Positions 9,685 to 43,011 of a DNA stretch of 64,000 bases are shown here, in pieces. How positions within the stretch are numbered: the stretch's first letter is position 1; each line of letters starts with the position of its first letter. The stretch covers positions 57,545,676-57,609,675 of the forward strand of contig CM049316.1 of the NCBI GenBank assembly GCA_026874595.1, given 5' to 3'. The translations under genes and the position numbers were made by a program. The notes under the pieces are model-generated. The model was not told the DNA's origin. It worked only from the letters and a program-made list of their open reading frames with translations, and searched no databases. The stretch is from Sipunculus nudus. Lineage: Eukaryota; Annelida; Sipuncula; Golfingiida; Sipunculidae.

Positions 9685-9874
9685 AAAAGATTATATTGAT
9701 TAGTTTTTCTATACTGGGGGAAGTGCCAGTATATATGAATACCCTTGCATTTGTTAATGTACCTAAAATATATACAACACATACAGTAAACATGTAAAAA
9801 TACATAGAATACACTAAATAATATGAACAATGACATAAACATCAGAAAAATAAGCTTACCGGTTATGACAAGTT

Positions 9875-12982: not shown

Positions 12983-13311
12983 TTATGACAAGTCCCATTG
13001 GAGTACTTCTGCGTTTTGGATGGCAACATTCTGACAGGAGTCTCAAGGTACGCACTGGGCGATAAAAGATATCCGCAGTTTCATCGGGTCTCGCCTAGCC
13101 ATAAAAGTGGTCTGGCTCCCTGATCATTGTAAATGTATGCTCTAATTTTTGGGAGATGGGAACTTTACTATTCCTGGGGCTCGGTCTTGGCACTCTTGCG
13201 CCCCTGGTGGCTTGTCAAGTGCAAACCAGCAGGCCGCGGTTCGACCACGTGTGTTGTGTTGTGGTAGGGTGAAGCTAACGTCGACCACCAATACAGAGGC
13301 GTCTAATCTTA

Positions 13312-14272: not shown

Positions 14273-14330
14273 AATCACTATAGACAACAAAGTATACCGA
14301 GAGCGCACTGATGGAACGTCCGTTCACTCG

Positions 14331-14339
14331 GCCATATTG
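14331..14339 (-). promoter_or_regulatory. YY1-like site at +11 to +19 of the L1-like element
   Basis: The minus strand reads CAATATGGC within TTCAATATGGCCGAGTG. The element's first base, set by the target-site duplication, is 14349, so the motif covers +11 to +19. Human L1 has a YY1 site (CAAGATGGCCG) at nearly the same distance from its start, where it fixes the transcription start. Function here is inferred. Confidence 0.6.
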
Positions 14340-14349
14340 AACCGGAAAC

Positions 14350-14365
14350 GGGTTTAATTATATTT
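14350..14365. repeat. Target-site duplication of the L1-like element, right copy
   Basis: GGGTTTAATTATATTT, identical to 5713-5728. It marks the 5' end of the element at 14349. Confidence 0.9.
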
Positions 14366-14945
14366 GTTAAAATCATCTAAAAGAAAACTGATTTCTTTAA
14401 AAATGCTACATTAACACAACATGGCATCTTCTGGATTACACCTTGAATTACTTTTTCAAGGAAAGTTTTTGTATATTGGAGTGAAAACGGCATAACAATT
14501 TAGGAGATACAAAGAAAACAATAACAATTACTGCATAACACTTTTTTTATCAGATTAATTTTTTTTTATTTACAAGTTTTATAAATTTGTAATAAAAAAT
14601 CTGAAAATATAAGTTAAAATATCAGAAGTCTAAGTTGCAATCATTATTTATCTAGAGTGTAGCTCATATGGGGTCATATTATGCATACACATATATTTTA
14701 TTATTTTAAATCACAAATGTTTGAACTGAATTTAAAAGAAAATAATGCCACAACATGGCATCTTCAAGATTATTCCTTGAAAAACAATTAAAATGTTTTG
14801 TATATTGGCGTTTTCAGTACATGCTTAATTTTATTCACTGAAATTAAAGATTAAGTAAATTTGATAAAAAAAAACCATCTTTTTAAATAATGTATACACA
14901 ATCTTGGTTGAATGAGGGACAAACAACATCATTGTGCTAACTAGA
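14366..14945 (+). repeat. Family C repeat, 3' portion
   Basis: From about 14540 this matches 53085-53475 and 20560-20720: shared TTATTTACARGTTTTATAA, TGAAAATATAAGTTAAAATAT, CATATTATGCATACACATAT and the end block GGTTGAATGAGGGACAAAC followed by ATCATTGTGCTAA. 14366-14540 holds a second, weaker CACAACATGGCATCTTCTGGATT copy of an internal block. Non-coding. Confidence 0.7.
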
Positions 14946-15305
14946 ATACGGGTAGTCGACAAGCGACTACGTGTATCCGCCAAAATCAGAGTAAGACGGG
15001 TGAAAAGAGGCATGGATTGAGTGGCAAGGGGATATAGAGTTACATGTGTTACATATCAGAATTGAAGTCTGCCACTTAAACATGATTGTAGGTGGCGCCA
15101 CCTGTTATTTGAACGAGAAACTATCCAAGATGTATACACATGCAAAATTTCAGGTGGAAAAGTCAAACCACTGCAGAAATAAGAGTGATTTTATCCCACA
15201 GCAGAAAAACAGATGGACACTGTGTAAAAATGGCTGCTGGTGGCGCCACCATTTTTGTGTATGTTATAAAGCAATCCAAGGGCTACATTTCCTGATTGGT
15301 CAAAC

Positions 15306-16605
15306 CAAGGAGTTTACAGGGATGGAGTAACAACTGTCAGAAGCCCTGCCAGGTCGCGAGTGTCAATTGCAATTAAGACATGATAAGCCCATTAACTCTA
15401 TTGTACGCCTATTGTGCCGCCGGGTTAGGCGCAGCGGCGGCACCGCCTTTGATAAAGCGAGCCTGCTAGATGTTACTTCTGCAGTCCGCTGTAGCTCGCT
15501 GAAGCGGAGAGCGATATATCCAGTAACTGAGCAGTAAATCACGGGAATAACATTGACCGGAATTATGAATGCGCAAATGGTTTGTTTTGTCAAGAATTAT
15601 GCGCAACAAAAATATCTAGAAAGGTCTCGTGTTGAGGAATCACTTGATCGATTTTGGGATAGATGCGGTCACTCTACATCAACTTCTGCCGTGATTCATG
15701 ACGGACGGACTGGTAAGTGTAAACCTTACTTTCCCTGAATAGCTTCGGAATTATAAAAAATTCCATCAATTCCCACACTTCTGACTTATATTAATAATTA
15801 GCCATGTATTATAGTATTCCGTCGATAAAAAAAATTTTGACGCTTATTATCGGATGACTCTCATTTTGATGGATAACTGATAGCCACCACCCCCTCTGTC
15901 ACTGACGGCGTTGTTCTCGTATTATCGCCCATATTTACCGCAGCCAAGCTATAGCTCAGGCGTCATTAGCAACGACAGCTTCACACGTTTCCCACACATA
16001 AGAAAATATGGTATTCAAACTTATGATTGTTTAAAAATTTATATTAAATACTACCCGTGATAAATTTGGTAACTTAGGCCAAAAAAATAAAAGGATATGG
16101 TTCTCAGGCACTTTTTTTCAGAAATCAATGCGGGCGGGCGGTATTTTTTTTTTTTTACCTTTTTTTTGTATGTTTCGATAAAATGTCATTTGATCTGGGA
16201 AAAGCATGAAAATGACAGGTTTCTTCTTGCTAAACAGGTAAAGGCACTACATAAAAAAGATAATGGTATCGAAATTGTATTATTTTATCTTCTTGAAAGA
16301 TGAAAATAAAAAAAAAATGTTTGATGCGGGGGGTTAAAATTGACGCGGGCGGTGCCTGAGAACCATACCTTTTATTTTTTTTTGGCCTTACTCATCCTTG
16401 TCACAATATTTATAAAAATACCGGTACTATAACGAGCTGTTCCGAATTAGTCACGCCGAAGGGGGGTCTCTCGCGCTGTATCAATTAGCACCGGGCTTAT
16501 CAGCGGCATCTCTTTGTGCCTTAGAGTAGCGAGTTTTATGACCCCCGTCAGCAACATCCGACACGGCAAGACTCTCACTTGATACTCCATCCCTGTAAAC
16601 TCCTT
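15306..16605. mobile_element. hAT-like nonautonomous element, 1.3 kb
   Basis: Flanked by the 8-bp duplication GGTCAAAC (15298-15305 and 16606-16613), which is a normal internal sequence of the host family D monomer. Terminal inverted repeat: left CAAGGAGTTTACAGGGATGG, right end reverse complement AAGGAGTTTACAGGGATGGA. An 8-bp duplication fits hAT. No transposase is present. A GC-rich hairpin (CGCCGGGTTAGGCG region, 15418-15445) lies inside, and a Harbinger-type MITE is nested at 16077. Confidence 0.8.
16077..16387. mobile_element. PIF/Harbinger-like MITE, copy 1 (311 bp)
   Basis: The ends are GGCCAAAAAAATAAAAGG and its inverted counterpart ending TTTTTGGCC, each followed inward by TATGGTTCTCAGGCAC. 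Flanked by the 3-bp duplication TTA (16074-16076, 16388-16390). A second copy sits at 40843-41179 in the opposite orientation. Interior has GCGGGCGGGCGG and long T-runs. Superfamily inferred from the TTA duplication. Confidence 0.85.
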
Positions 16606-17440
16606 GGTCAAACAAGTCCAAAGATAAAAGCATTAATGTCTGCAGCGTGAACGTGAATGTAGGTGGTGCCACCTGTCATAAAATCAAGAAAGCTATCTAG
16701 GATGTATACACATGCCAAATTTCAGGTGAATTAGTCAAACCACTGCAGAGATATGAGTGATTTTAACCCAAGGCAGATGAACAGATGGACATGTGTATGT
16801 TATAAAGCTGTCCAAGGGCTAAATTTGTGTAAATTTTTTTTCCTGAATGGTCGAACAAGTCCGGAGATATAAGCATGGATGTCTACAGCGTGAATGTGAA
16901 TGTACGTGGCGCCGCCTGTCATAAAATCAAGAAAGCTATGCGGGATGTATACACATGCCGAATTTCAGGTTATTTGGTCAAACCACTGCAGAGCTTTGAG
17001 TGATTTTATCCCAAGGCGGACAAACAGATGGACGCTGTGCAAAAATGGCTGTAGGAGGCGCCACCATTTTTTTTTGTACGTTATAAAGCTATCCAAGGGC
17101 TACATTTTGTGTAAATTTATTTCCTAATGGGTCAAACAGTTCCTGAGATATGAGTTTGGATGTCTGCAGCGTGAACATGAATATAGGTGGTGCCACCTGT
17201 CATAAAATCAAGAAAGCTTTCTAGGATGTATACACATGCCGAATTTCAGGTGAATTAGTCAAACCACTGCAGAGATATGAGTGATTTTAACCCAAGGCAG
17301 ATGAACAGATGGACACTGTGCAAACATTTTTTGTGTATGTTATAAAGCTATCCAAGGGCTACATTTGTACAAAATTTTTTTCCTGATCGGTCAAACGATT
17401 CCTGAGATATGTGTGGAAACAGATGCACAAACAGACCATG

Positions 17441-18158
17441 GAGACACTTGACATTGTGTATGAAAACTTGAATAAAAGCTTCTCTATTCCATCAATTCCT
17501 TTGAAATTTCTTGTTTTAAAAGATTAAATCCTTATGTATATATGCTGTGAAAATAAATCAACAATGCTGACAGGGAAAAAAAATGCCGTAGCCAAAGTTG
17601 GACAAAATTTAATGTATTGATTTTTTATTAATGCTAAAAACTTAAAAAATTTGCATAATTCAGATCTAATTTTGGGTAAATAATTGAATCTCGATTTAAT
17701 TAAGTTATATCCCTGAAAAAAAAGTCTCCAGCTTTAGCTATTCTCATGTTAAGTGAGTAAATATATTTCCTGATTTTTAAAAAATTGCAATATATTTGGA
17801 CCCATAACTTCAAAACAACACTCAATACTGACCTAATTTTTCGGATGTAAATAGAAACTATATGGAAGAATAAGAATACTAAATATGATCAAAAACAGGT
17901 CAATGGTTTTGATATTAGGCAGCCTTGAAGTGTAACAATGGCTTTTTTAAGGAAAACAGAGGTTTTTCCTTAATATTTAGAAGGAACACTGACCCAATTT
18001 TTGGTATGGTAGGAGATTTTGGGGACATCTAACTGTATGCAAAATTTTGGATTCATAGGCCCAACGGTTTCAAAATGTGCCCTGTTAACGGACGGCCGGA
18101 TTGACGACAGACAAAGGACCATGACTGTAGCTCAGATGACTTATAGTCAGCTGAGCTA
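17441..18158 (+). repeat. Family A repeat, copy 1 (single monomer)
   Basis: Contains the ordered blocks AAAGATTAAATCCTTATGTA, CAAAGTTGGACAAAATTTAA, CTAATTTTGGGTAAA, TTTTGATATTAGGCAGCCTT, GGAGATTTTGGGGACATCTA, a CGGACGG run and a terminal hairpin at 18128-18158. The same order occurs at 20741-22145, 40255-43003 and 53850-55300. Non-coding. Confidence 0.85.
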
Positions 18159-19134
18159 AAAAGCAAACGTACCACATATCCATATAATGGCATGCCACTT
18201 TAAAGGTGTGCCCCAGATCCCAGCCCTAGACTGGAGTATTGTATGCAGTTCAATGATGGGCATTTTCAGATAATATCTATAGTCATAAAGTAATTTTTTT
18301 TTTCAAATCAAAATACCTGAATATGATCAATATAAGAACACAGCAATACTTTTACTATTTTTATTTGTTCCATTAGGCTTAAAACTGACAATATATATGA
18401 TTAGAAACTGCATATTACCAAGCATCCATGGGGTAGTATTTATTTCCCATTCACTGTTTTCTGATAATACTGTTAAAGGGTTGTTGGTCTTAACACAATA
18501 ATAATCAAAGATAATTAATGATGGCCAATACAGAGAAAATAATGAAAGGTCAATTAATATAAATCAAGGGACATTTATCTGCTATGGAGCATTATATAAC
18601 AATTTATACATACAACATTTCAAAGTACATATCATGGTGGATAATCGCTATCAGGATGTTAACAGATTTTATGATAAGTATAAAAATGTATGTCCTTATA
18701 TTAAAAGCCAGTCCTGAGGTAAATGTAAATATGAACTTATGGTGCAAAATATAGAAACTGTAACAAAAAAGTTAACTACAGTAACTGTAAAAACAACAAG
18801 TATATCATATAAAAAACTAAAATAACAAAATAATTTATTCATCATAACATTTGGTATAACTGAAGAGTATTGATTCAGGGAACACAAGTTGTTTTACAAA
18901 ATATGTCATAAAGGAAATTATTTGCCAGTCTGTAACTTTCACAAAATTTCAAGGAGACCAAGATTTATCCAAAATAAAAATAAAATAAAAATGCATATAT
19001 ATTTGGGAGAAAATTGGTTAATTCTAAAGCACTCTACCATCTCCTGTGATTATTCTATCTGCTGAAGCTTGGGCCCTTTTCACTTTAAGGCTGAATTATT
19101 CCTATATATTTCAACAGGTGAAATTCCAAGCTAA
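18159..19134. other. Intronic AT-rich sequence, nothing recognised
   Basis: No element ends, tandem repeats or coding pattern were seen. A 63-codon minus-strand ORF at 18696-18887 is low-complexity hydrophobic and is not called. Confidence 0.5.
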
Positions 19135-20740
19135 AAACAAGGGAACCATGGGTCATGACGCTCAGCTGATCGTGATTGGACTATAAATGTTTCTCCACTG
19201 TGATACTATATCGAGTCAATAAAGCTTATGAATATCATGGACATGTTGGGCTATTATAAAGGAATGTAAATGTAATATGTGAGTAAATGATAAATGAAAT
19301 TACATGACTGATGGATTAATAGAGTCAAATATAGTGGTTTATTTTTTTATTTATTTAGAAGGGGTTGAAAATTGTGATATATTTGAGCAAATATGAATGC
19401 AATGACAGCAGTAATAAGCAGTAGTAGAATGATGATAAGGCTATTTGTCTAAAGTGTATGGTAGTCTGCAAGCTTTCAATTTGACAGATATGATGTTATG
19501 ATTAACTTTGCTGATGAAGTGATTTATGAATTTGTGACTGTATGACACAATATCTCTTTAGTCTTGACAAGGTACATTATTGTGATGCCCACAATGCCTA
19601 CATATTACACAATATTGACATAATTTCTGGCATGTACATAGGTACCTATGGACAAATAGTTAAACAAAATATTAAAGTATGAATATATCTGTTTCATCTT
19701 GTTCTTGCTTACTGAGGCTGACTTTGGGATAAGGTTCAGAGAAGGGAAAAGTGAGGGCAGCTCGAAGGTGGATGTAGAAATATTCTATTGTAATGTTTTT
19801 CATTTATATAAGAATATGAAAAGCTAAGAGGAAAGGGGCCCTCCTACTTGGTTATAGTAAAGTTCTAAATATATGATTGCAACTAATACTCTGACAAGAC
19901 TGTCATGAAGAAAAACAGTAAATGCAAGCTTTCAATTTGACAGATATGATGTTATGATTAACTATGCTGATGAAGTGATTTATGAATTTGTGACTGTATG
20001 ACATAATACCTCTTTAGTCTTGACAAGGTACATTATTGTAATGCCCATTATGTCTACATATTACACAATATTGACATAATTTCTGACATGTACAAAGGTA
20101 CCTATGGAACAATAGTTATACAAAATATTAAAGTATGAATATATCTGATTCATCTTGTTCTTGCTTACTCAGGCTGACTTTGGGATGGGGTTTGGAGAAG
20201 TAAAAAGTGAGGGCAGCACGAAGGTGGATGTAGAAATATTCTATTGTAATGTTTTTCATTTATATAAGAATATGAAAAGCTAAAAGGGAAAGGGGCCCTC
20301 CTACTTGGTTATAGTAAAGTTCTAAATATATGATTGCAAACTAATACTCTGACAAGACTGTCATGAAGAAAAACAGTAAAAGTTTTGAGATACTGTAATG
20401 CATATGAAAATTTACAGATGGACAGGCAAGTGGACAGAATGGACTAATACCTTTATTTCACTTTTAAGGGATTAATGTATTTAAGTTTATATATAAGCCT
20501 TTTTTTAAGCATATCCACTTTTTCCATTGAGAAGTTTTTATCTGAATCATTTTTTTTATTTACAGGTTTTATAAATTTTTAATAAAAAAACCTGAAAATA
20601 TAAGTTAAAATATTAGAATTGTTGCAATCATTATATATACAGAGTAAAAAACTGAAACTATAAGTTAAAATAATAGAATTGTTGCAAAAAATGCAATCAT
20701 CATATATCCAGAGTGTAGTTCATATTGGGTCTAGGTGGGC
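19135..20740 (+). repeat. Family C repeat with internal 456-bp tandem duplication
   Basis: Opens with ACAAGGGAACCATGGGTCAT and GCTCAGCTGATCGTGATTGG, then ACTATATCGAGTCAATAAAG. It matches 52143-53480 in the same order. The block from about 19465 to 19920 is repeated at 19921-20380 (AGCTTTCAATTTGACAGATA at 19471 and 19927), nearly identical. The copy at 52143 carries only one such block, so the duplication is local. Confidence 0.85.
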
Positions 20741-22145
20741 TAGATGTAAACAACACTTGACATGGTGTATGAAAACATGAATAAAAGCAATTCTTTCCAA
20801 TCAATTTCTTTGAAATTTCAGATTTTAAAAGATTAAATCCTTATGTATATATGCTGTGAAAATTAAATCAACAGTGCCAATGTTGGACAAAATTTAAGGT
20901 ATTGATTTTTTATTTATGCTAATAACTTGAAAAATTTGCAAAATTCAGATCTAATTTTGGGTAAACAATTGAATCTTGATTAAATAAAGTTATATTCCTG
21001 AAAAAAAGTCTCTAGGTTCAGCAATTCTCATGTTAGGTGAGTAAATATATTTCCTGATTTTTTTTAAAAATTGCATTATGTTTTGGCCCATAACTTCAAA
21101 ATAATACCCAATACTGACCTAATTTTTGGTAAGTTCATAGAAAATGTATGAAAGAATGTGAATACTATATACGATCAAAAACAGATCAGTGGTTTTGATA
21201 TTAGGCAGCCTTGAAGTGTAACAATGGCTTTTTTTATGGAAAATGGAGTTTTTTCCTTAATATCTCGAAGGAACGAAGTCCTAATGACCCAATTTTCGGT
21301 ACAGTAGGAGATTTTGCCAACAGCCTGGGGAGCATAGAGATGTGCACTGAATGACCTGCAGTCATCAAAGTGGACTGCTTGACAATGTAAGGGGAATACA
21401 ACAAGAGCCTCCAAAAAAATTCAATAACTAGCCTAATTTTGCAGCTTTTATTTTCAAATTTCAGATTTGAACGGATTAAATCCTTATGTATACATGCTGT
21501 GAAAATTAAATTCACAGTACTTACAGGAAAAAAATGTGCCGTGGCCAAAGTTGGGCAAAATTTAAGGTACCAATTTTATATTTTTGCCAATATTTAAAAA
21601 AATGTAACAGATTTTGATCTAATTTTTGGTATACAATTAAATTTTGATTAATTAAAGTTGTATTACTGGAAAAAAGTCCCTACCTTTAACACTTTTGGTC
21701 TTAAGTGTCCAAATATCTTCCTGATTTTTTTACAAAGTCCATTATGTTTGGGCCCATAACTTTTTTAAATTATATAATACTGACTTAATATCTGGCAAGT
21801 ACATAGGAACTATATAGAGGAACATTTATGGTAAATATGAAGAAAACCAGATAAGTGGTTTTGATATTAGGCAGTCCTGAAGTGTGAAAATAGATTTTTA
21901 ATAAAAAATGAGGTTTTTCCTTAATATCTGGAAGGAACGAAGTTCTATTGACCCAATTCTCGGCATGGTAGGAGATTTTGGGGATATCTAACTGTATGCC
22001 GAATTTCAGATTCGTAGGTCCAACGGTGTCGAAATGTGCCAGTCTTACGGACGGACATCCAGAGGGACAGATGGACAGACAGACGGACGGACGACGGACA
22101 ATGGACCATGACTATAGCTCAGATGACTTATAGTCAGCTGAGCTA
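20741..22145 (+). repeat. Family A repeat, copy 2 (two monomers)
   Basis: Two related monomers of about 680 bp in tandem (20741-21420 and about 21440-22040), followed by a GGACGGACGG-type run and the hairpin at 22115-22145. Each monomer contains TTTAAGGTAYYRATTTT, CCATAACTT, GGTTTTGATATTAGGCAG and GGAGATTTT. Confidence 0.85.
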
Positions 22146-23250
22146 AAAAAAAACATTTTCAGGGGGAAGGGACAGAAAAAAGGCCCCTTGAAATGCCTAG
22201 AAAAACCCCTTGACTCTAACCCTTCCCCCCCCCCTCATCTAAGGCGGAAATTAATTTGTTTCCAATAGAATAGTGATGTTAAATTCTATTTAGAACTTTA
22301 ATGATTTTCAAATATATCAAATTCTTTGATTTCTCAGTGAAAAGAGAGAATAGGACTGAGTGTCTGTTCATAAAAAAGATTCTTGATTCAATGTGGGAGT
22401 AAATACAAACACTCCATTTTTTTCATTTCTGAACAAGAAATGATACAGGCCACAAATGAAAAGAAACCCTTTTAATACAGTAGAGCACTGTTTATCCGAA
22501 AAGCTCATGGGACAGGGTTTTTGTTTGTATAATGGTCATTCAGATAAATGATTCCACACGACTCACCATGATTGCCAACCTGCTGCCAAGCACCAGACTG
22601 ACAGACATGAATAAATGGAGCTAGTAAAAAAATAAACAACAGCATTTTAATAAGGTTTTCCATCGATGTAATCAATTTATCATGTAAAATGTAAAATTTA
22701 AGACTATGATAAGTCTGAAAGATAAAGAGTTAACTCTCTTGTATATACAACCACATACTATAAATAAAGTCCCCTACAAAAGGTTAAGGCTGATCCTTGG
22801 ACCAGACTAGCTTTGTTTCTTAGATGATGTTTGGTTAATTACCACTTTTTTTAATTAGGTCTCCACAGAGTATACTAATACTATTATATTTTACCAACAC
22901 TGAACATTAGCAGTGTCCCTTTGATCAGAATCACACTGCTCTATAGGTCAATATGAATATGTTCCTTAGATCAAGCTATGTTTAACTTATTACAATCATT
23001 CTAGAAATATAATTTTTTAAATAGAAACAACATTTCACAGAACAAGTTTATGACCTTACAATAAGCACTGTTACTTAGTGCTTATCATGTTATATAGCTC
23101 CTAAGATATTTTTCTTTAACTGGCCTTAGATTATGCCAACATTATCCTCTAATTAATGTTTCTTGGATCAGTCTGATTTCCATTTCTTTCACTGCACTAA
23201 GTTCCTTAGATAAATCTGATTTTTATATTTGTTTGGCTTGGGTCTTTCCT
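22146..23250. other. 3' flank of the prominin gene; one pogo-like end
   Basis: AT-rich, without coding pattern. CAGTAGAGCACTGTTTATCC at about 22480 resembles the terminus of pogo/Tigger elements, but no matching inverted end was found nearby. No long A-run and no clear AATAAA on the minus strand directly after the prominin stop codon. Confidence 0.4.
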
Positions 23251-25797
23251 TCAGGCTATGCTAACTTGATTTCTAGATGGTGGCTTCACAGTTCCTACTG
23301 AATCCTTCATTTGTCGGTAATACTTGGCAAGCTTCACATTAATAAACAAACTAGGCACCATGAAGAAGATAGCCCAACCTAGAGAGAACCAGAATCCATT
23401 GAGTGTATCAACAAAATACCTGCACAGTACAGTCCCTGTTATAGCCGTATACAGGTTATACAAAGGCTGACATCCACCGGCAGTGTTCACGATCTTGTCC
23501 AGGGTGTGGTTTATGTAAGACTCGGCTATCCCCAGTAGCCGAGTGCCGTAGACTGTCGCTTGATCCTTTATAAGTTGGGAGCCATTCTGCTGAAGGTAAC
23601 TTTCCACACTCTTGGCATTGTCAAGAGTAGAATTCACAGTGACAGGTATGTTAGCCATTGAGTTATTCAAGCTTTGTACATTGGTCAGTAACTGGGCTTG
23701 CTTAGTCCTCACAGTTTCAGCGAGACCATTATCCAGATCCCTCAGGTCGCTGGCATGATTTATCAGACTTTCGTTCACTGGTGATGTACTGTTAGCAGCC
23801 AGCAGTTCTAGAACTTCCGCGAATGCAGTCAAATTTGCCTGAGTTGTGCCTTTCCCAAGTTCTGAGTTAAACTGATTAAAGTCAATACTTGTGGTAGCAC
23901 TGAAATCTCTCAACTGGTTTTCTGTGTCTGAACTCAGGATGCCCACAGAACTCAAATCCACATTGATCTTGTCCATCTCACTGCTGATGTTGATTTGGCT
24001 ATGGATATTAGCAATCTGCTGGATATCAAACAAGTTATCCAGCTTGAATGCAGCCATGGCACCCTTATTGTTCTTGCAGTCACTGAGTACACCAGCTGTG
24101 GTTAAGGGTACACTGCCGTTTTTCAAAATTAACTTACCCAGCATGTATTCTTTGAAGTAACCGTTAGGACCATCCAGCAGTTCTGATAAATCTTTCAGCT
24201 GTGGGTCCTTCAGTGGCTCACACACCAGCTTTTCGAGATTTCCTCCTACAAGGAATGTAGTTGATGTCAGCAGCATCAGCAGCACAGAGAAGATGAAGAT
24301 GAAACCAGTTGCTGCCATCAGCATCAGTCCGCCACAGTTTGAGCAGCAGTTCCTGTCCTTAGGATTAGTATCAGCACTGGAACACAGACATCCAAACACA
24401 AGTCCCAAAACCTGGAGTACTACAATGATCAAAATGGTGCTGGCTAAACCAATGGAGCCGTACCATCTATACTGGTCATACTCCTCAGCCATCTTACTGT
24501 AGTCTGTTACCATGGTCTTATACTTGGAGATTTCTGGGACAATACTCTTTGGCATGTCATTCACAGACTGGAGTGTGGAGTCTATCTTTGTGTTAAAATT
24601 ACTCATCATACCTTTGATGTCACTCACTGTTGAAGCAGTCTCATTCTGCACTCGCTGAGGAATGTCGTCAAATTCTTGCTTTCCCTGGATAACCAGAGCC
24701 GTCAGATTCTTAGCTGTTACATCTTGCATCTGGTTAACTTCACTAGAAATATCAGGCAGAGAATTAAAGTTCACATCCATCTGTAAAGTGGTGATGTCAA
24801 TCTGATCACTGCATCCAGCACATGCTGGATCAGATATTGTAATGTTAATCTGCTGTTGTACATCAGACAGGTTACCTGACAGCTGGGCAGCGTTTGCTTT
24901 GATCTCATTGATACTTGTGTTCACGGCGAACAAACTAGCAGACACTGAGGATATGGTGGATTCCATGTTGAGTATACTATTAATAGCACTGTCCACTCCA
25001 CCATTTGTGAGCAAGTTTCGTCTGACTGGGATCCCGACAAGGTACCCGATATTATCCAGATCTCTCGTGATGACTTGACTTGTAAAATTAAAACTCTGAG
25101 GACCAAGGAAATTAATCTCCTGGAGGGTGTTATTCAGGTAACGTTCAGCATTATCCATCTGATCGGCAGTTGTGGAGCTGACTGCTCTCACAGCAGTCAT
25201 TATGTGCTCACTCGTTACGTACGTGCAGATCATGCCGACACCCATGAACACAGTCAATATGAAACAGGTCAAGCTGAAAACAGTTCTCCTGCATCCGGAG
25301 CTGCTGTTAATGTTTTGTGTCATCTTCCCTCCACATTTACCGCAACAGCGGCAACAACAGAATATGAAGCCCATGAGCGGTGTGATGAGTATATACAGGA
25401 TGCCGATCGCAAAACATACTGCGAAACCTATACCATACATCACTATCTGCATGTAATCACTACCAAAGTTAAAAGTCCCAGATATCAGAGCTTTCACCAT
25501 ATCTGTAGGAAATGTGTTTGGCTGAACCACATTGATGAAATTTCTTGCACCATTAAACAGCGGACCCAGTCCTCCGTCTTTAAATGATTCATCTCCAGCA
25601 TATTGTGATCCTGCAGGTGGACTGCCCCATGTAATGCTGCTATTCTCATTTGCAACATGTCCATTGTCGGATATTGTACTTGGCGAAAAAACAGGATCAG
25701 CACAACGAACACTCGATGATATAAAAACCACCAAAATTGCTCCTGATAACACAATCATGTTGACAGCATCTCTGGAACCAATATGTTGACAAGCCAT
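23251..25797 (-). CDS. Prominin (CD133-family) five-span membrane glycoprotein, intronless
   Basis: 848 codons without interruption, the usual length of the family. An N-terminal signal segment (MIVLSGAILVVFISSSVRC, residues 14-32) precedes an extracellular start, TM1 (about 116-147) and a cysteine-rich cytoplasmic loop (FCCCRCCGKCGGK). TM2 (172-195), a large extracellular loop with many N-glycosylation sequons, TM3 (443-470), a short Cys-containing loop, TM4 (492-520), a second large glycosylated loop and TM5 (800-825, FWFSLGWAIFF) follow. It ends VKLAKYYRQMKDS, the typical prominin ending, plus a short tail. Prominins bind cholesterol and organise plasma-membrane protrusions. Vertebrate prominin genes have over 20 exons, so an intronless complete copy suggests a retrogene; it lies within a CCNDBP1 intron, same strand. 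The alternative is an ancestrally intronless paralogue. Confidence 0.92.
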   Translation of the reverse strand: MACQHIGSRDAVNMIVLSGAILVVFISSSVRCADPVFSPSTISDNGHVANENSSITWGSPPAGSQYAGDESFKDGGLGPLFNGARNFINVVQPNTFPTDMVKALISGTFNFGSDYMQIVMYGIGFAVCFAIGILYILITPLMGFIFCCCRCCGKCGGKMTQNINSSSGCRRTVFSLTCFILTVFMGVGMICTYVTSEHIMTAVRAVSSTTADQMDNAERYLNNTLQEINFLGPQSFNFTSQVITRDLDNIGYLVGIPVRRNLLTNGGVDSAINSILNMESTISSVSASLFAVNTSINEIKANAAQLSGNLSDVQQQINITISDPACAGCSDQIDITTLQMDVNFNSLPDISSEVNQMQDVTAKNLTALVIQGKQEFDDIPQRVQNETASTVSDIKGMMSNFNTKIDSTLQSVNDMPKSIVPEISKYKTMVTDYSKMAEEYDQYRWYGSIGLASTILIIVVLQVLGLVFGCLCSSADTNPKDRNCCSNCGGLMLMAATGFIFIFSVLLMLLTSTTFLVGGNLEKLVCEPLKDPQLKDLSELLDGPNGYFKEYMLGKLILKNGSVPLTTAGVLSDCKNNKGAMAAFKLDNLFDIQQIANIHSQINISSEMDKINVDLSSVGILSSDTENQLRDFSATTSIDFNQFNSELGKGTTQANLTAFAEVLELLAANSTSPVNESLINHASDLRDLDNGLAETVRTKQAQLLTNVQSLNNSMANIPVTVNSTLDNAKSVESYLQQNGSQLIKDQATVYGTRLLGIAESYINHTLDKIVNTAGGCQPLYNLYTAITGTVLCRYFVDTLNGFWFSLGWAIFFMVPSLFINVKLAKYYRQMKDSVGTVKPPSRNQVSIA

Positions 25798-27429
25798 GTT
25801 CTCAAAGTTTACTCCAAGTGTTGGGTTCCTCTAAAACTTAACTATATGTAACACTGTTTAGTACTGGTCAACAGTGTACCTTAATTAACCACGGGTCAGT
25901 GTGAGCTCCCTTTTAAGCACTCTGTTGTCAAGCTGACTACCTGGGCAAGTTGTGACATATTATCACATAGCAACTGCCAGAGTTAGTTAATCATCACTCA
26001 ACCTCAATACAGTTTACGGTATTCTAATTAGGGGTTACTGTCTCACATCAACAGACTCACCTGCAATAGGATTACTGTAGTACTATTCATTAGAAAGGAG
26101 TTGAGCCAGTACTGTATACCATAATAAACACACCAAGGTCATTATTCAGTAATATATATTAATAACCATCTGGTTTTGATAAATACCAGTAATTCTATTT
26201 TTGCATCTTTTTCTAAATACACTAGGTGTGACATTGTCACAAACACACTGAAAGTAAAAAATGACCCAGTCACAAATCATTATAATCAAACATCAAAACA
26301 ATAAGCACAGTTTATTTGGAATTAGCCACCATAATGGGCACAAAAAGCCACCTTGATAAAAGAGAGCTGACATGTATAAGTATTGAACAATACTTTTTCT
26401 TTTTTTTTTATTAAAAGAGTGACTTTCATAAATGAGGCCACACAAAAAATTGTTCATGGGTTCACTATTCTTTGCAATTGAGGACCAGGTCCTTGGTAAT
26501 ATTGCCTCAATCCTTAGATTAATTCTTAAAAGTGGGTAAAGGGTCTAAATGTTTTGTTGATCATATGCACCAATCCAAGCTCTGAAGTCAATTTTTTGTA
26601 TTTTTTTTTCAGGCCAAATTTTATCTTTTCTCAACTGGTGAATTAAAGAAAACAGAAATTTGCCCTCTTCCACCAATTTTTTAATTAATTTTTTATGCCA
26701 GTGTTAATAGAAAAATAATTTTTTTTGTGTGTGGCCTCGGCTACATGCAGGCTTCCATGAATACCACACAGGGCTGTCTGATAACAATCAAGATAAAAGT
26801 ATGGAAGAAATAAACAAGTAATTTTTCAATCATCTGTTTACAACACAATAGCTGACTTATCAAGAGGGGGCTAAGTAGATTTATATAATAGTAACATAAT
26901 ACCTTTCTCATCAAAAGTGAAGCATGTTTATATTTAACACTGTTTCCACACTCAAATTATACTATACAAACCGCTCATATGTTCATCAGCAGATTTATAA
27001 CAAACCAAGCCATATTTTATTACGTCTACAAGGATTATAAAGCTATATTGTACAACAAATATTTAAAAAGGTTCAAATCTGGTTTGAATTGCTGAACTAT
27101 AAGTGATATTTCAGGTGCAATTAAAATCCATTTGTTTATCCAAGAAGTGAAATGTTTATCAATGAAGCACTATGCAATTAACATGCTTGTGCATAAAATG
27201 CATGCAATGATAGAAAGAAAAAGTGGCTGGTATAGATTTTCAACAATATGTGTTTACAATATTCCACACTTAAACACCCACATTCAGAAAGTTAAGTATC
27301 TGTTTAACTAAATATGAGTATATTAATAACTACATGATCTTATTACTACTGTAGTGGGATTTTTGTTTGCGAGGGTTTCAAATTTGTGATGTTCCTGAAA
27401 GGGGATTTATCATGAAAATAAACCTTAAA
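25798..27429. other. 5' flank of the prominin gene, nothing recognised
   Basis: AT-rich. No exon-like segment and no clear TATA box. TTTTAG lies about 30 bp upstream of the start codon on the minus strand, so a 5' non-coding intron cannot be excluded. Confidence 0.4.
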
Positions 27430-27446
27430 ACAAAAAATTATCTAAA

Positions 27447-27747
27447 TTGGTTGTGTGGCTTAATGTCAATAAGTTATCTTTGAATATTGATAAAACACAC
27501 TTTATGGTATTTAAGAAAACTAGAAAAAGACTGCAGTTAAAAGATAACATTAAAATATTGATTAACAATATCCCATTACAACAAGTGTTAAAAACTAGAT
27601 ATTTGGGTGTTATTTTGGATGATCAATTAAACTGGCGTGATCAGATTATGATTTTACGTCACAAAATCTCTAGGGGATTAGGAATTATATGTAAAGCTTG
27701 TAAAGTGTTACCCAATTCTTGCATGGTTTCATTGTATAACAGCTTTA
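27447..27747 (+). pseudogene. RT C-terminal fragment of the CR1-like element (first part)
   Basis: Open for about 100 codons up to the MITE insertion. WLNxNKLxLNxxKTxFMVF and YLGVxLDxxLxWxxQI are conserved RT palm/thumb motifs. The open frame beyond 27749 runs into MITE sequence and is not protein of this family. Confidence 0.8.
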
Positions 27748-27749
27748 TA

Positions 27750-28583
27750 CAGAGAAGTCTAATTATAACAAACATGTTTGTTCCATGGGAATAAGTTCCA
27801 TAAATCGAATTTCCTTTGCATGAAATTTCAGAGTATGCAGTTTATGTGGTATGGCAGAAAATTGAGCAATAAGAGCAAAACGTTTATATCAAATAAAACT
27901 TGTTTATTACATAATGAACATATATACAAAGCAAAATTTACAATGTTAATGTACATAATGAACATAAATACAAAGCAAAATTTAAAACATTAATGTTCAT
28001 AAAAAAAACTGTGATGCTCGCCTGTTTACATCCGTATGATGAATCAAGACTGGTCATCGGGGCCAGATCCTATACTATTTATACCTAATTTTTCAAAGCT
28101 ACATTGTTTGGATAATTATGTCATGGTTGTTTGGTTTAACATACTTTATGGTATCTTTTGAATCTCAATTAACGAGGTATGTGACAAGGTCATTTAGTCC
28201 TACCAAACAATTTGACATTGATTCACTAACTAATCCAGCAACACGCGAGGTGTGAACACAGGTGCGCTCAACCGAGAGAGCGGGTAAACAGAGGTGACAT
28301 TACCACTAGACTATGGGCTGGTATGAAAATCTGCTCTGTCATGTGTTAATTAGCCCGTCTGGGTGTAAGAAAGATCAAACGACTAGGGGAAACTTGGACC
28401 TTACCACCGCCAATCTTAGTTTGCTATAGCAATTTTGAGTATAGGGGCGAGGTTCATTTTGTTTCATGTAAATCCGTTCAGATCTGGAACTTGAGTTTTC
28501 CGTTATACCGAAGCCAATTTTAACTTTCATTCCCTAGAGATTCATTCTGTTGTAATGGACCCCGTTATAACAAGACTTCACTG
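27750..28583. mobile_element. pogo-like MITE inserted in the CR1 RT gene
   Basis: Left end CAGAGAAGTCTAATTATAAC; right end as reverse complement CAGTGAAGTCTTGTTATAAC; TA on both sides (27748-27749, 28584-28585). Removing the element plus one TA rejoins the RT frame as SFI-YPYLTYSIEVW, the family motif, which confirms the borders. 834 bp, no transposase. Inside lies a degenerate tRNA-like A box on the minus strand near 28300. Confidence 0.88.
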
Positions 28584-29392
28584 TATATCCATACCTTACC
28601 TACTCTATTGAAGTTTGGGGATCTGCTAAAAATCATGATCTTGATATGTTAATTTAACTTAAAAAAAGAGCTGTAGGAATAATCACTTCATCATCGTATT
28701 GAGCTCAATCTGATATATTATTTCAGTCACTGAATATTCTTGAGTTACCAAAGATTTATATTAATTGTGTGCTTCTTTTCATGTATAAGTTTAACAAAGG
28801 TCTCCTACTGTCTCTTATAAATAATTTATTTTCAGTAAATACTAATGTTTATAATACAAGATAATGTACCAGTATGAAAAATTGGGGCAATGTATAGGAC
28901 TATTCATTTTAAAGGTGTTAATTTATGGATCACTTACAGAACAGTATTTGACATGACCCCGTCTATCTAAGTGTTTAAGAAAAAAGTTAAACAGTATTTA
29001 ATGTCTCAAAATATGAATTATTAATTCATTATAACACATTGCATTCAATTATTCATGCACATTTTCTGTTTAATGCACAATATTTCCTGTTTGCTCTGAT
29101 TAATAAATGTACTGTAAGTGTAATTAGTAAAGGGGCATATACTCTTTAAGGTTGAGCCCCCTTTGATCGATGGCATAAAATGTATATTTGTTGGTGAAAT
29201 ATCAGAATGTTTTGAAGTATGTTTCTACTTGTATTATGCCTTAGTCAATAAATTTCAAAGTTCAAGTTCAAGTTCATGAATATCATGACTCATCTACACA
29301 GGTGCACAGCCACTTATAATATAGCTCACTAGCATCTCATGTATAATATGTCAATGCAATATTGATACCGTATATTCTCTTGAATAAGCTGC

Positions 29393-30142
29393 TGTGACAG
29401 AGGTGTTATAACCAGTTCATTCCTTGTTGGTAAATGTTAGAAAGTGTACATTAGATTTTTGTAATTTTGAATCTGTCTCTATATGGTTAATTACCTGTAA
29501 GTATAATTAGCAATTCAATGAAGGCCAAAGCTTGTTCAAGGAGGATGACACTTAGATTAGAACTAATTAGCAGTTAGGTAAAGGCAATGGATCTTAAAAA
29601 GAAATTCACACCCTTGTATGTGGTGCCAGTCAGACTAAAAGATGTTCACACTTATGCTACTGGATTTAATCCAAGCATTCTTGTTGATTAGTTATCAAAG
29701 AAATCATGACCAGTTCAATATGTTTATAAGGATTGGTAATCGGGTGATAGGGCAGAGAGATAGAGATATAGGAGACAGAGGTGTGCACCCTGTGCATCTC
29801 TGTCCACCCTTGTAGGACATGGCTGACATGTGGCACACTGATGTAACTGGCTGCAACCTTGGAAGAATATTTAAGTAAGTTATCGACTTCCATCAGCAGA
29901 AGTAATGACCTTTGATGTGATCCAAGAGCTGCCTCCTATGATTGTTATGTTCTCTTAAGTATCTGTGAATCTGTGATGTTCAGCCGGAATTTAAGCCAAA
30001 ATGTCAACAGGGACAAGTATCTGTATTGTTCAACTGTGCAGCTGTAGTGTTATGTTCAACAGAATAAATTATGTGTTAAAGTTTGAAGGACTTACTCTTT
30101 GAAGTCACCAAGATAATATAACAACAACTATGCCATGTGACA
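29393..30142 (+). repeat. 5' LTR
   Basis: 750 bp, complete, TGTGACAG...TGTGACA. It differs from the 3' LTR by scattered substitutions and by a segment of about 190 bp (about 29422-29606) that the 3' LTR lacks. Confidence 0.85.
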
Positions 30143-31365
30143 TATGATGGACAACAGTGGTTAAGCATTCTTTCCCAAGATGCTAAGGTCCCGGATCCTC
30201 AAACTAGCCAAGTATGAGCTCTACCAAGATAATTCCCCAGTGAAACACAACATCTGCCAGAAGAAAGATGGGCATCCTCAGAAAACCCAACGTTCCAGCA
30301 GAGGAACCAAAAAGAAGAAAGATAATCCTCAAGTACTGGTATTTTTATAGTTTCTGCACACTAAGTTACTCAAATGGACCTTGTTTTAAACAGAAAATTG
30401 TAATACCTTGTAATAATAGCCAAGGTAATGTTGTTTAAGATAAATGTTGGTCATTCATTGAATCATGTATGTAGACTCATAGTTTATTCAGTGTCAAGTG
30501 CATTTTGATGCACTAAAAAATTAACCTTACCAAGAAAATACAAAGATGGATAAGTGTATTTCAGGATAGGTTCAATTTTACAAGATTCTAAACTACATGT
30601 ACATGAAAATTCAAACAGAATATAAAAGAATCATATATGTATATACTGAATTTATTATGGTTATAATAGAAATTACAGAAGTATTATGTTCATAATTCTT
30701 TAGTGCAATGGTTACACTGTGTTCATCTATGATTATTAAGCTACATAGCGATGTCCATCTCAATTCATACTCACTGCAATTGCATCAAAGGTAGCTACAT
30801 ATTTCAGGTGGTTATAGTACTTGTGTTTCGAACCAAATTCTATGTGTACACGTAATTAGATTTAAAATTTTCAGTAACACACCTATGAGTGTAAGCCAAC
30901 CTGTCTTGACCTCCATTTTCCATTTGTATTCATTTATCATTTCATCGAAAGGAACATCATATGAATTCTTGCAAAAAAGCTGAGACATGTATGAAGTGCC
31001 TCTTGTAAGCTTAGTTTTGCTAATTAAGATGTTGTAACCAATTAATTACTCAGTGGTAAATGTTTGAAGTTTATGTATGGGCTGTATATATTGCATCAGT
31101 CCAGTGGTAAAAATGATGTATCTTAAGAAATTAACAATGGTATGTTGTTTAAGTATAACGATATTAGTCTGTGTCTTGCAAAACCAGCTGAGAAATGATA
31201 AGTCTCTGGCAAGTCAGGTTCTGCTGATTAAGATATGGGCCATATACTCTAGCCCTAATGGCTAATCTGTTAGATAGGGTATGGTATCATATTGTGACTT
31301 CATACTTAAAATAATTATTAATTCTTAAAGGTTCAAGGACGAACCTTAAGGAGGGAAGGACCATA
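30143..31365 (+). other. Internal region of the LTR element
   Basis: Holds one small basic ORF at 30181-30351 (MLRSRILKLAKYEL..., with SSRGTKKKKDNPQ), possibly a gag remnant or chance. The remainder is AT-rich without coding pattern. It ends with a purine tract AAGGAGGGAAGGA at 31348-31360 next to the 3' LTR. Confidence 0.6.
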
Positions 31366-31877
31366 TGTGACAGAGGTGTTATAACCAGGTCAAATCACAC
31401 CCTTGTATGTGGTGCCAGTCAGAATAAAAGATTTTCACACTTATGCTATTGGATTTAATCCAAGCATTCTTCTTGATTAGTTATCAAAGAAATCATGACC
31501 AGTTTAATATGTTTTTAAGGATTGGTTATCAGGTGATAGGGCAGAGAGAGAGAGAGAGATAGGAGACAGAGGTGTGCACCCTGTGCATCTCTGTCCACCC
31601 TTGTAGGACACGGCGGACATGTGGCACACTGATGTAACTGGCTGCAACCTTGGAAGAATATTTAAGTAAGTTATGGACTTCCATCAGCAGAAGTAATGAC
31701 CTTTGATGTGATCCAAGAGCTGCCTCCTATGATTGTTATGTTCTGTCAAGTATCTGTGAATCTGTGATGTTCAGCTATAATTTGAGCCAAAATGTCAACA
31801 GGGACCAGTATCTGTATTGTTCAACTGTGAAGCTGTAGTGTTATGTTCAAAAGAATAAATTATGTGTTAAAGTTTGA
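31366..31877 (+). repeat. 3' LTR, left part
   Basis: Same start as the 5' LTR. It is continuous up to AAGTTTGA at 31877, where the TIR element begins; the LTR continues at 35616 with TTGAAGGACTTAACC, matching the uninterrupted copy at 30088. Confidence 0.85.
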
Positions 31878-32934
31878 GTGCAATTCTTCAAATAGGGGTC
31901 AAAATAGGGTCCGACTGCTTCATAGGGTATTATTAACACACAATCATGGTTATAATTATATCAGAATGAGTTTGACGATTTACTTCGATTCCCCATGTGA
32001 GGGTAATATTGCAAGAGTAAGTCCAGATACAATTTTAGGGCCAATTTTTAAGATCCAAAATGAAACCGTAATAAAAAAATATATGTCCTAAATAAGAGGT
32101 TCCAATGAAAATATAAATAAATTTAGTACCCATCACTAATAATTCGGGTATTTTTGTGTTTGTTTACTATAAACAAGATCTAATGTGCTTCCTACAAAAT
32201 TTCTATGAGCTGCTCTTCAGTATTTTTCACTCGCTGGACTAACGAAGCCATGTCCTAAATTTTCGTCAACTCCGTTACAACTGCACCAATATGCCATCTA
32301 CAGCCATCCAGTGGAACAAATCGAGTGGCTGATCATATCATTCGTTACAGTGTAGGGCATTCAAAGTGAAGAATCATGGCTTCAATCCGGAGTTTTGATT
32401 TTTATCAGTGAAAAAGTGTATAAAAAGTAAAGTAGCTTAATTCACCCATCAACTCTGTTACGCCATTTGTGAAAAAAGTAATTGTTGAAACCTATAAACA
32501 TCCATGAACAGAGAGAGGCATCGTAAATCTATCAGAATTGAAATATTTGTTTGAAGGATTTCATGTCTATCATGTCCGCTGATTAGGTAAAATTTAAAAA
32601 ATAATCAGCTCCGTTACGATCAACTCCGTTGCCATTCTATTGTAACGGAGTTGACGAATCACCAAACATTTTTTTATGAAAAGTCCAACCAGTAATAAAT
32701 TATTCTCTGGTGAGAGGATTTATAAATAAGCACACTGAAGATAAGAAGCAGCTTCACTGACCACTTGATATATAGTATAATCCCTTTTAATGCGTTTATC
32801 TTGGTCTGGAAAATACTGTTGCTCTTTGAAAACAAATAACTAATTTTGGTAATTAAAAAATGCTTAAGTCTTGAAATTTGACAGCAATAGAAACATTAAA
32901 ACTTATATATTAGACATATTTTATAAGTTTGTTT

Positions 32935-34029
32935 TAGAAGTGCGGACCGGACCGGACCGTTCGATGCACCAAGTAAGCGCCCTGTTTTTGTCAGGTCCAG
33001 CTGTAAGCGTTCCGGTCCATAAGGTGGACCGGTCCAAGGGGTTCGGCACATTTGTTAAAATATCATCAAAATTAAAATATATTGTAATTCCTTTTATTCA
33101 ACGTTTGTTCTACATATTTTTTATTACATATATTTGTTCAAATATTTAACAAAACCAAATATCATACACAACAAAACGTGCTATAAATGTAATATAATAA
33201 TCTATACTTTAATCGCAGGATCTGGGTTTGATTTTTAATGACAAATTTAAAATTACAGTCTTTTTTAATAAATTTTTCAGTGGTAAATATTTTGTGTTAC
33301 TGTGTGGGGCATAGTGATTAGAATATAAGCCAAATGTGCAGGGTGGAGCGAGCTGATTTAAAGAATTTGCTTGGCGGGGATAGATGCGGGCTGACATACG
33401 CTGATGAAGTTTTGTAGCGGTTTAAGTGCGATTTGATATTGAAAACTTATTAATCTAATGTGCAGGGTTGGGCGAGCTGATTCAAAGATTATACTGGGCA
33501 GGGATGCAGATTGACATCAGCTGATAAGTTATGTAATGGTTTATGTGCGATCTGATACAGAAAACTTATTAATCCTTTGTTAATAATCTAATATAAAGAA
33601 TATATTTAATGTATTCATCGTATAGAAATTGGTCTTATTATACTAAGCAAAAGTATCAGCATTGTGCAACACAGCAGGGACAATGATCTAATGCTGAACA
33701 TGTCACTTCAATCATAAGTTAATAACAAAAAATGAACTTTAACTGTTACTCATGATGGAAAAAAAAATAAAATAATACATGTGCACGTATATAATTGTAC
33801 TATTGCAGCTGTCATTGCTTTAAATATATTTTATGTAGCCAATGAGTCTTTCTGAGATGGTTTATTACCCCTTGTTCATAACACGATTGTTGGTGAAACT
33901 AAATCCTGAAACACATTTGTTTAACTTAATCCTTTTAACATTAAGTTCGGCAGTCAAACCGGTCCGGTCCAGGAATAAGCGGTCCGGTATTTTGTGTTAT
34001 CGGTCCAAGCGGTCCGGTCCGCACCTCTA
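32935..34029. mobile_element. hAT-like MITE with GGTCC-rich ends, 1.1 kb
   Basis: Flanked by the 8-bp duplication GTTTGTTT (32927-32934 and 34030-34037). Ends: TAGAAGTGCGGACCGGACCG and, reversed from the right, TAGAGGTGCGGACCGGACCG. Subterminal GGTCCGGTCC motifs are repeated on both sides. A 124-bp internal tandem duplication (33333-33456, 33457-33573) begins AATGTGCAGGGT. No transposase. Confidence 0.88.
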
Positions 34030-34081
34030 GTTTGTTTATGAGCTTATAACTTAAATTCATTGGGTTTACAGGCTAATCACC

Positions 34082-34264
34082 ATGGCTAAGACTGGAAAAG
34101 AACGAATGAGGGTATATAGACATTATTATTTTCTGTTGGATTCATCTAATGAAGTGTTAGGCATTTATATAAGAAAGAATATCCCCTTAGCCCACAAACG
34201 AAAGGAGAACATTCCAAATATGAACACTGTGTGTTGTGTATTCTGTTCTCTGTTCTACACCTGA
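34082..34264 (+). pseudogene. Possible transposase N-terminal remnant
   Basis: 60 codons from MAKTGKERMRVYRHYYF, rich in Lys/Arg at the start. TTTACAG and a CACCATGG context precede it, and a possible donor (GGTATATAG) follows after 12 codons. Similar AKTxxERxRxYR openings occur in some invertebrate transposon proteins. The rest of the protein is absent. Confidence 0.35.
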
Positions 34265-35533
34265 CAGCTTTTATTGTAACACAAATTCAGGTTGATTACA
34301 AGGCCGCTGAAAGTGTTCAGCTCCATCACGTTTTAGCATTGCATTGACCATCCAAGGAAATTATGACTTCTTAATAAAACATGAAGTCTTTTGCATTAAA
34401 TTAGGAGAAAGTTTTGGAACATATTACTGTGTACACCTTTTAAGTGGTCGAGCAGGCCCTTTTTACTTAGGATTCACTGTAAATCCAAAAATTGGTATCA
34501 GTTTACTATAATATTTGCGTTATTGTTTTAAATATTTGTGAAATTAATGGTAATATTTTATTAGTTTAGATGACACTAGCCTTTAATGCCAGTTGCATAT
34601 ATAGCACAGCTCTATAAGGTAACAAGACTATCATTTTTGTTGAAAATTGATCAACTCCGTTACAGCTCTTAATTGTAACAATATTTTCCTGGATTTAGAT
34701 AATGTTGGCATTTCTTTACTTTCTCAAGTATTTTATTGTCATTAAAGGAGAAATATGTTTTTATTGAATTCATATTGAAATGGTTAAATACCTAGTAGGT
34801 AGGCATTTAGCAAGTTCTTTCTCGCAACAATCCCGAGCTGAGTTGTTCAATTTAGCAGTAATTTACATTAATTGACTTTATGTGTTTAAAATAAACTTTA
34901 TATGGTAAACTTTTGTTTACCGGTCAGGGTAACTTGTGTCGATATATTTTAGCATGATACAACTTGATAGTTATCTGTTTACTTTTTGTTCAAATGTGTT
35001 AAAAGTTTAGGTAAGAATATCTTAATAATTTAGTGCGTTATCAACTCCGTTACATTCCAGTCAGCGCAACATTTTAGCCAAAAACTATATTCGACCGTTT
35101 TCCTCCAGACTTTGCAGAAGATAACGTTACAAACTATTGTCAAATGATGGACAATTTGTAGGAGATCAGTAATATTGAGCGTATACCTGTCTCTTTTAGC
35201 AAGTTCTCTTCAATGCACTTTATGGGTCAAACATTTGTGTGCACTATCACCTTATTATTTAGCATTAATAAAAATGTCAGGAATAATTTTCATATCAAAC
35301 TCTAGTGTTTATGATGATTGTGTACCATACTTTTGTAAAATCTACATACGTGACACATTCATTCTTCTTTTTTTACCGCATTATTTTGTGATTTAAAAAA
35401 AATAAACTGCTGTAACGGAGTTGACTTGCTGACTAAAGACTGCTATTCTTCTATTGTGGTAAAAAAGCAAGTATGGATAAAAGTGCGCTGCTGATGGGAG
35501 TTTTTGACCTTTCATATATCCCGCTTGAAAAGG

Positions 35534-40023: not shown

Positions 40024-40072
<49 letters not shown>

Positions 40073-40154
40073 AGAGAGAAAGAAAGATGGAGAGAAAAAG
40101 AGAAAAAGCAGAGGAGAGAGCGAGAAAGAGAGAGAGAGAGAGAGCTAGACTGCC

Positions 40155-40185
<31 letters not shown>

Positions 40186-43003: not shown

Positions 43004-43011
43004 AAAATCCA

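What the first reader, a model, noticed from the sequence alone, without database searches (positions are those of the whole stretch)
23251..25797. Complete intronless prominin gene nested in a CCNDBP1 intron
Seen: 848 codons without a stop, with five membrane spans, the cysteine-rich first loop and the canonical C-terminal YYRQM end, between CCNDBP1 exons at 46211 and 3484 on the same strand. Known: vertebrate prominin genes are split into more than 20 exons. Inference: a retrogene that was kept functional after landing in the giant intron, perhaps using host transcription. No poly(A) tail or target duplication remains, so it would be old and under selection.
Basis: partly seen in the sequence, partly recalled or inferred. 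Interest (0 to 1): 0.8.

Follow-up and report, generated by a model that had tools for sequence, protein, structure and literature searches.

The report
Conserved prominin retrogene inside CCNDBP1 intron
A complete, intron-free copy of the membrane-protein gene prominin sits inside an intron of another gene, was most likely made long ago from the RNA of a 22-exon prominin gene that still exists in the same genome, and has been kept intact by natural selection.

Summary
Window 23251-25797(-) is an 848-codon open frame matching almost the whole Pfam Prominin profile. It lies on the host's strand in a 42,726-bp intron between two CCNDBP1 exons whose joined peptide hits GCIP_N. The retrogene reading is supported. 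A multi-exon parent on C1 (about 22 coding exons, 60 kb) is 63% identical in protein; the ORF lacks its introns, 20 of 21 junctions gap-free. A second intronless copy on C1 (96% identical) lies in a DNA-level segmental duplication (pieces 85-91% identical). Between the copies the CDS has no indels where flanks predict 25, and dN/dS is 0.16-0.22: both were kept. No CCNDBP1 exon was found at C1, so host transcription is probably dispensable (inference). Eleven very diverged intronless prominin ORFs on C14 and C8 do not form one clade with this pair (p-AU 5e-5), so intron loss happened at least twice. The kind is known: retroposed, intronless expansion is documented in molluscs for another family. 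Searches listed no prominin case.

The parts
23251..25797 (-). intronless prominin ORF, 848 aa (retrogene)
18097..38873 (-). window side of a DNA-level segmental duplication shared with C1:60098642-60113254 (collinear pieces 85-91% identical, broken by repeats), wholly inside the CCNDBP1 intron and holding the retrogene
25798..27749 (-). 5' flank shared with the C1 copy: 90.1% identity over 1908 aligned bases, 20 indels; 93% in the 200-bp bin 25909-26108. Its far end (about 27425-27749) is a dispersed repeat
22309..23250 (-). 3' flank shared with the C1 copy: 93.6% identity over 942 bases, 8 indels; the C1 copy has no run of 7 A in the 1250 bp after its stop
46211..46291 (-). CCNDBP1 exon upstream of the nesting intron (acceptor exact to within 1-2 bases)
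3403..3484 (-). CCNDBP1 exon downstream of the nesting intron
3485..46210 (-). CCNDBP1 intron (42,726 bp) that hosts the retrogene

Best explanation
A spliced mRNA of the multi-exon prominin gene now at C1:83.32-83.38 Mb was reverse transcribed, probably by a LINE, and inserted elsewhere. The intronless copy gained or brought enough regulatory DNA to be expressed and was kept under purifying selection. Later, a block of at least 14.6 kb carrying it (as measured on C1) was duplicated at DNA level, so that one copy now lies in the CCNDBP1 intron on C11 and one at C1:60.107 Mb. It most likely makes a full pentaspan prominin that works at membrane protrusions like other prominins, from its own promoter inside the shared block. 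Shown: absence of the parent's introns, closest relationship to that gene, DNA-level duplication, constraint. Inferred: reverse transcription and LINE machinery, own promoter, expression, cellular role. The direction of the duplication is not known.
For: Parent: 23 exons drawn by my spliced alignment, the first (19 bp) probably spurious because exon 2 has its own ATG and signal-like N-terminus, leaving 22 coding exons and 21 introns; score 2660 against 278 and 270 for reversed and shuffled protein; 519 of 827 residues identical. 20 of 21 junctions have no gap within 8 residues (20 of 22 with the doubtful first). The parent protein aligns to the window block and to the C1 copy as one exon each. 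Tree: window+C1 copy join the C1 multi-exon gene with 100/100 support. 11 of 21 parent introns match the C2 multi-exon paralogue in position and phase, 0.35 expected if placed at random, so introns are ancestral. Selection: 0 indels in 2547 bp against 25 expected (P=1.4e-11); 57 synonymous and 33 nonsynonymous changes at 563 and 1981 sites (Fisher P=1.2e-17); 32 amino-acid differences against 122-200 in 2000 neutral simulations; dN/dS 0.155-0.222; both branches short of nonsynonymous changes, 10 against 22 synonymous and 14 against 18, 21 unresolved. Synonymous divergence (0.101) is near flank divergence (0.087), so homogenisation of the CDS is not the reason.
Against: No poly(A) tail was found, and target-site duplications were not searched for, so the insertion signature is missing; with saturated dS it should have decayed. 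No RNA data. No other species was available, so selection rests on two paralogues. dS of the parent comparison is saturated, so the event is only known to be old; YN00 failed on that pair. The C2 gene model that supports ancestral introns scores only about twice the random control (605 against 270-278) and was guided by the C1 protein.
Confidence: 0.9

Rival explanations
1. The copy arose by DNA duplication of the multi-exon gene and lost its introns later, by recombination with cDNA, rather than by insertion of a retrocopy.
For: No poly(A) seen; the locus did later move by DNA duplication.
Against: All 21 introns are missing, and flanks of the retrogene (27749-25798 and 23250-22309) show only three matches of 26-44 bp at E 0.002-0.004 to the 65 kb of the parent locus; at this age flank similarity could have decayed, so this is weak.
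Confidence: 0.06
2. It is a processed pseudogene that happens to be open.
For: Intronless, nested in an intron.
Against: No indels in the CDS against 28 in 2.85 kb of flank; 32 against about 159 amino-acid changes expected; 99.95% of neutral simulations had a stop.
Confidence: 0.02
3. Prominins of this lineage are ancestrally intronless, so no retroposition is needed.
For: 13 long intronless prominin ORFs in the genome against 2 multi-exon genes found.
Against: The multi-exon genes share 11 introns; the intronless pair nests beside a multi-exon gene; one clade of all 13 intronless proteins is rejected, p-AU 5e-5.
Confidence: 0.01
4. A retrogene, but expressed only as a by-product of CCNDBP1 transcription (intronic or chimaeric transcript).
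For: Same strand as the host, in a 42.7-kb intron.
Against: The C1 copy is intact and constrained, and the two CCNDBP1 exons tested were found only on C11; such short exons can be missed, and whether C1 lies in another gene's intron was not tested.
Confidence: 0.15

Closest known systems
Multi-exon prominin of this genome (C1:83.32-83.38 Mb) and vertebrate PROM1/PROM2
   Same: Prominin profile, signal-like N-terminus, five membrane spans, Cys-rich stretch at the first loop; many-exon prominin genes are described for mammals (PMC5049760 and PMC10967083, passages seen).
   Different: No introns, different place in the genome, 63% protein identity to the C1 gene; exon-based alternative splicing of the parent kind is not available to it.
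Intronless nicotinic acetylcholine receptor genes of molluscs (PMC6896357, passages incl. part of the abstract seen)
   Same: Intronless copies of an intron-rich gene that persist and spread further by DNA duplication.
   Different: Different family; there many in tandem arrays, here an interchromosomal duplication plus a dispersed set mostly on one contig (C14).
Nested functional retrogenes in host introns (general class, recalled; general retrocopy reviews were only listed, not read)
   Same: Same-strand retrogene in an intron.
   Different: A duplicate outside the host gene gives an internal test of dependence on the host.

Membership tests
Prominin family (PF05478) | match over nearly the whole profile | tested here: met
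   622.5 bits, 21-799 of 799
Prominin family (PF05478) | signal peptide and five membrane spans with Cys-rich stretch after the first | tested here: met
   hydropathy only; no topology or signal predictor run
Prominin family (PF05478) | fold like a solved prominin | tested here: inconclusive
   model pLDDT 69, pTM 0.43; no prominin chain found in PDB by sequence; Foldseek matches have low TM; TTYH chains among them, prob up to 0.91 but TM 0.24 or less
Prominin family (PF05478) | location at membrane protrusions | not testable with these tools
   no experiment
Functional retrogene | intronless copy of a multi-exon parent elsewhere | tested here: met
Functional retrogene | closest to the parent in a tree | tested here: met
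   100/100; single-genome tree, no other species
Functional retrogene | intact frame and purifying selection | tested here: met
Functional retrogene | poly(A) remnant | tested here: not met
   A7 runs at 22852 and 22423 only, none in 1250 bp after the stop of the C1 copy; a mark of young copies, expected to be lost in old ones, so not decisive
Functional retrogene | target-site duplication | not tested
   transcript ends unknown
Functional retrogene | transcription | not testable with these tools
   no RNA data
CCNDBP1 (host) | GCIP_N and GCIP_C domains on one strand around and beyond the intron | tested here: met
   remaining exons not traced. GCIP_N searched exon by exon in the genome gave nothing; a second, sub-threshold GCIP_C match lies on C13 (27 bits, cut-off 36.2)

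The most novel reading that the evidence does not exclude
Prominin in this animal has been repeatedly retroposed: once giving the conserved C11/C1 pair, and at least once more giving an 11-member, dispersed, intronless set (10 on C14, 1 on C8) that evolves fast (dN/dS 0.66-0.88 between its closest pair) and may have become a diversifying family of membrane-protrusion proteins with a new role, such as immunity or gametes. Intronless genes would then make up most of the prominin repertoire (13 of 15 genes found).
Probability: 0.3. Interest if true: 0.6.

Novelty: new member of a known kind. Interest (0 to 1): 0.45.

Why it matters
It is a clean natural experiment on how a retrocopy of a 22-exon membrane-protein gene stays functional: one copy inside a host gene, one where no exon of that host was found, both conserved, next to a second, separate set of intronless paralogues. 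It makes testable whether splicing-free prominins need host promoters, and whether prominin, a widely used stem-cell marker family of unclear molecular function, has diversified by retroposition in this lineage (species unnamed, mollusc-like by recall only).

Tried and rejected
Pseudogene, ancestral intronlessness and assembly duplicate (haplotig) were considered. The last is rejected because the two copies lie on contigs of 111 and 79 Mb with pieces of 85-91% identity, and the CCNDBP1 exons were found at one locus only. A transposon carrying the retrogene was considered: edges of the shared pieces abut dispersed repeats. In the C1 self-comparison the 40 best matches printed were all direct, none inverted; a dispersed repeat of about 270-300 bp does occur in direct orientation at C1 positions near both sides (4922-5189 and 16104-16402 of the 19.8-kb stretch), but the shared block runs past the first of these, so I do not read it as the end of a mobile unit. 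A ~3-kb repeat lies at window about 22141-19140 with an empty site on C1, read by eye. UTR similarity between the retrogene flanks and the parent locus: only three matches of 26-44 bp at E 0.002-0.004. GCIP_N searched exon by exon in the genome gave nothing, whereas the joined two-exon peptide did. Species identification from literature by assembly size and chromosome number failed. Sequence and fold searches for a solved prominin gave nothing useful. The C2 paralogue model scores 605, about twice the random control, and holds many tiny probably false exons; I rely only on its 11 shared junctions and on the two exons found independently, though the model as a whole was used as a row of the tree. 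Dropped before the tree: the C14:33.37 Mb fragment (180 aa open) and single exons of the multi-exon genes. Of nine proteins given to hmmscan, eight hit Prominin; L012 did not, although it scored 66 bits; it was kept in the tree. L009, L010 and L030 were not given to hmmscan. The paper search is uninformative: of 350 papers ten were listed and none of these holds the word prominin.

Full report
Observation. The window holds an 848-codon frame at 23251-25797 on the minus strand that matches nearly the whole Pfam Prominin profile (E=1.4e-186, 21-799 of 799). Hydropathy shows a signal-like N-terminus and five further hydrophobic blocks, with seven cysteines from residue 128 to 155. It lies between two CCNDBP1 exons of the same strand, about 46291-46211 and 3484-3403, with splice-site borders and a 42,726-bp intron. 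Their joined peptide gives one GCIP_N match (6.8e-10, profile 4-57), and a GCIP_C exon follows just outside the window. Only the 'canonical YYRQM end' is overstated, since 15 residues follow.

Relatives in the genome. The genome (1.43 Gb, 153 contigs; unnamed, with mollusc-like repeats, which is recalled and not tested) gave 20 Prominin matches, all 48 first-look candidates being scored. Two are the window ORF and a copy at C1:60107020-60109563. Four are exons of a multi-exon gene at C1:83.32-83.38 Mb. Two are exons of a second multi-exon gene at C2:63.10-63.13 Mb. Eleven lie in long intronless ORFs (10 on C14, 1 on C8; 755-1028 aa from the first Met). One is a C14 fragment.

Parentage. A spliced alignment of the window protein to the C1 multi-exon locus gives 23 exons. 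The first, 19 bp, is probably false because exon 2 carries its own ATG and signal-like N-terminus, leaving 22 coding exons over about 60 kb; 519 of 827 aligned residues are identical. Controls with reversed and shuffled protein score 278 and 270 against 2660. At 20 of the 21 remaining junctions the window ORF aligns without a gap within 8 residues. In the converse test the parent protein aligns to the window block and to the C1 copy as a single exon each. Eleven of 21 parent introns recur in the C2 gene model at the same position and phase, against 0.35 expected if placed at random. That model is weak as a whole (score 605, about twice the control) and was guided by the C1 protein. I conclude that the introns are ancestral and the ORF lost them.

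Tree. With 15 proteins of this genome, the window ORF and its C1 copy group with the C1 multi-exon gene at 100/100, then with the C2 gene at 98/97. The other 11 intronless ORFs lie outside these. Holding all 13 intronless proteins as one clade costs 64.8 log units and is rejected (p-AU 5e-5). Intronless prominins therefore arose at least twice. The C2 and C14:22.2 branches are long, the root is by midpoint only, and no other species is in the tree.

Duplication. The C1 copy is not a second retroposition. Homology extends far beyond the ORF, in collinear pieces of 85-91% identity from window 38873 to 18097 against C1:60098642-60113254, broken by repeats. At one of these the C1 side shows, by eye, the empty site. 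Genome searches with three flank pieces (each scoring only 40 of 688, 1967 and 180 candidates): 25798-27749 and 18097-19140 matched over their length only at C11 and C1, with short dispersed repeats at one end; 36572-37553 matched C11 (two places, one partial) and C1 at 89%, and also partial, more diverged relatives elsewhere (up to 829 bp at 81%), so that piece is itself repetitive. The block lies entirely inside the CCNDBP1 intron on C11, and the two CCNDBP1 exons tested were found only on C11, though so short a query can miss. Which copy came first is not known.

Selection. Between the two copies the CDS has 90 differences and no indel; the flanks (2850 aligned bases) have 28 indels, which predicts 25 in the CDS (P=1.4e-11). 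Synonymous divergence (0.101) is close to flank divergence (0.087), and nonsynonymous divergence is 0.017. 32 residues differ, where 2000 neutral simulations gave 122-200 and 99.95% had a stop. dN/dS is 0.155-0.222 by three methods. Polarised with the parent, both branches lack nonsynonymous changes (10 against 22 synonymous, and 14 against 18; 21 sites unresolved). To the parent, dN is 0.25-0.27 and dS 1.4-3.0 over both copies, saturated; YN00 failed. The event is old. The C14/C8 set behaves differently: its closest pair (555 of 778 residues identical) has dN/dS 0.66-0.88, a second pair 0.39-0.51, and a third 0.21 at saturated dS by the only method that worked.

Mechanism. Best reading: LINE-type reverse transcription of a spliced prominin mRNA, retention under selection, then DNA duplication. 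The window carries an open 1122-aa endonuclease/reverse transcriptase ORF, which shows that such machinery exists here, not that it did this. Because the C1 copy is conserved where no CCNDBP1 exon was found, host transcription is probably not needed and regulatory sequence probably lies in the shared block; this is inference. Whether the C1 copy sits in another gene was not tested. The protein probably acts like other prominins at membrane protrusions (role from PMC10967083, passages seen); nothing here tests that. An AlphaFold model was of middling confidence (pLDDT 69, pTM 0.43), and its fold search was not informative beyond weak TTYH matches.

Literature. Searches pairing prominin with retrogene (6 papers, all listed) and with intronless (8 papers, all listed) showed no title or abstract start on a prominin retrogene; a third listed ten of 350 papers, none holding the word prominin, and says nothing. 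Only open-licence PMC papers were searched. Intronless expansion by retroposition is known in mollusc nicotinic receptors (PMC6896357, passages). Oyster papers mention prominin transcripts in infection and in larval shell formation (PMC9679248, PMC5824581, passages). The case is thus a well-supported new member of a known kind, with an unusual family background.

Noticed in passing
L003-L010, L012, L029, L030 (C14 and C8): Eleven long intronless prominin ORFs, mostly 14-30% identical to one another; several seem by eye to begin with a short N-terminus without a signal peptide. Closest pair dN/dS 0.66-0.88.
   Followed up: partly
L030 (C14:17066500-17071200), minus strand: Its 1028-aa prominin ORF carries a long C-terminal tail of degenerate repeats, seen by eye (RR.S ... 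W(D/E)G).
   Followed up: no
L031 (C14:33370500-33373500): Fragment of an intronless prominin (180 aa open), by eye resembling the C14:16.9 Mb copy: probably a decayed member of the set.
   Followed up: no
window 6316-9684 (-): Open 1122-aa LINE-type ORF with endonuclease and reverse transcriptase domains, in the same CCNDBP1 intron.
   Followed up: no
window 13312-14139 (-): 275-aa coiled-coil ORF that may be a LINE first ORF; no Pfam family over its cut-off.
   Followed up: no
window about 22141-19140: A ~3-kb stretch bounded by dispersed repeat ends, 3' of the retrogene; the C1 copy shows the empty site by eye.
   Followed up: partly
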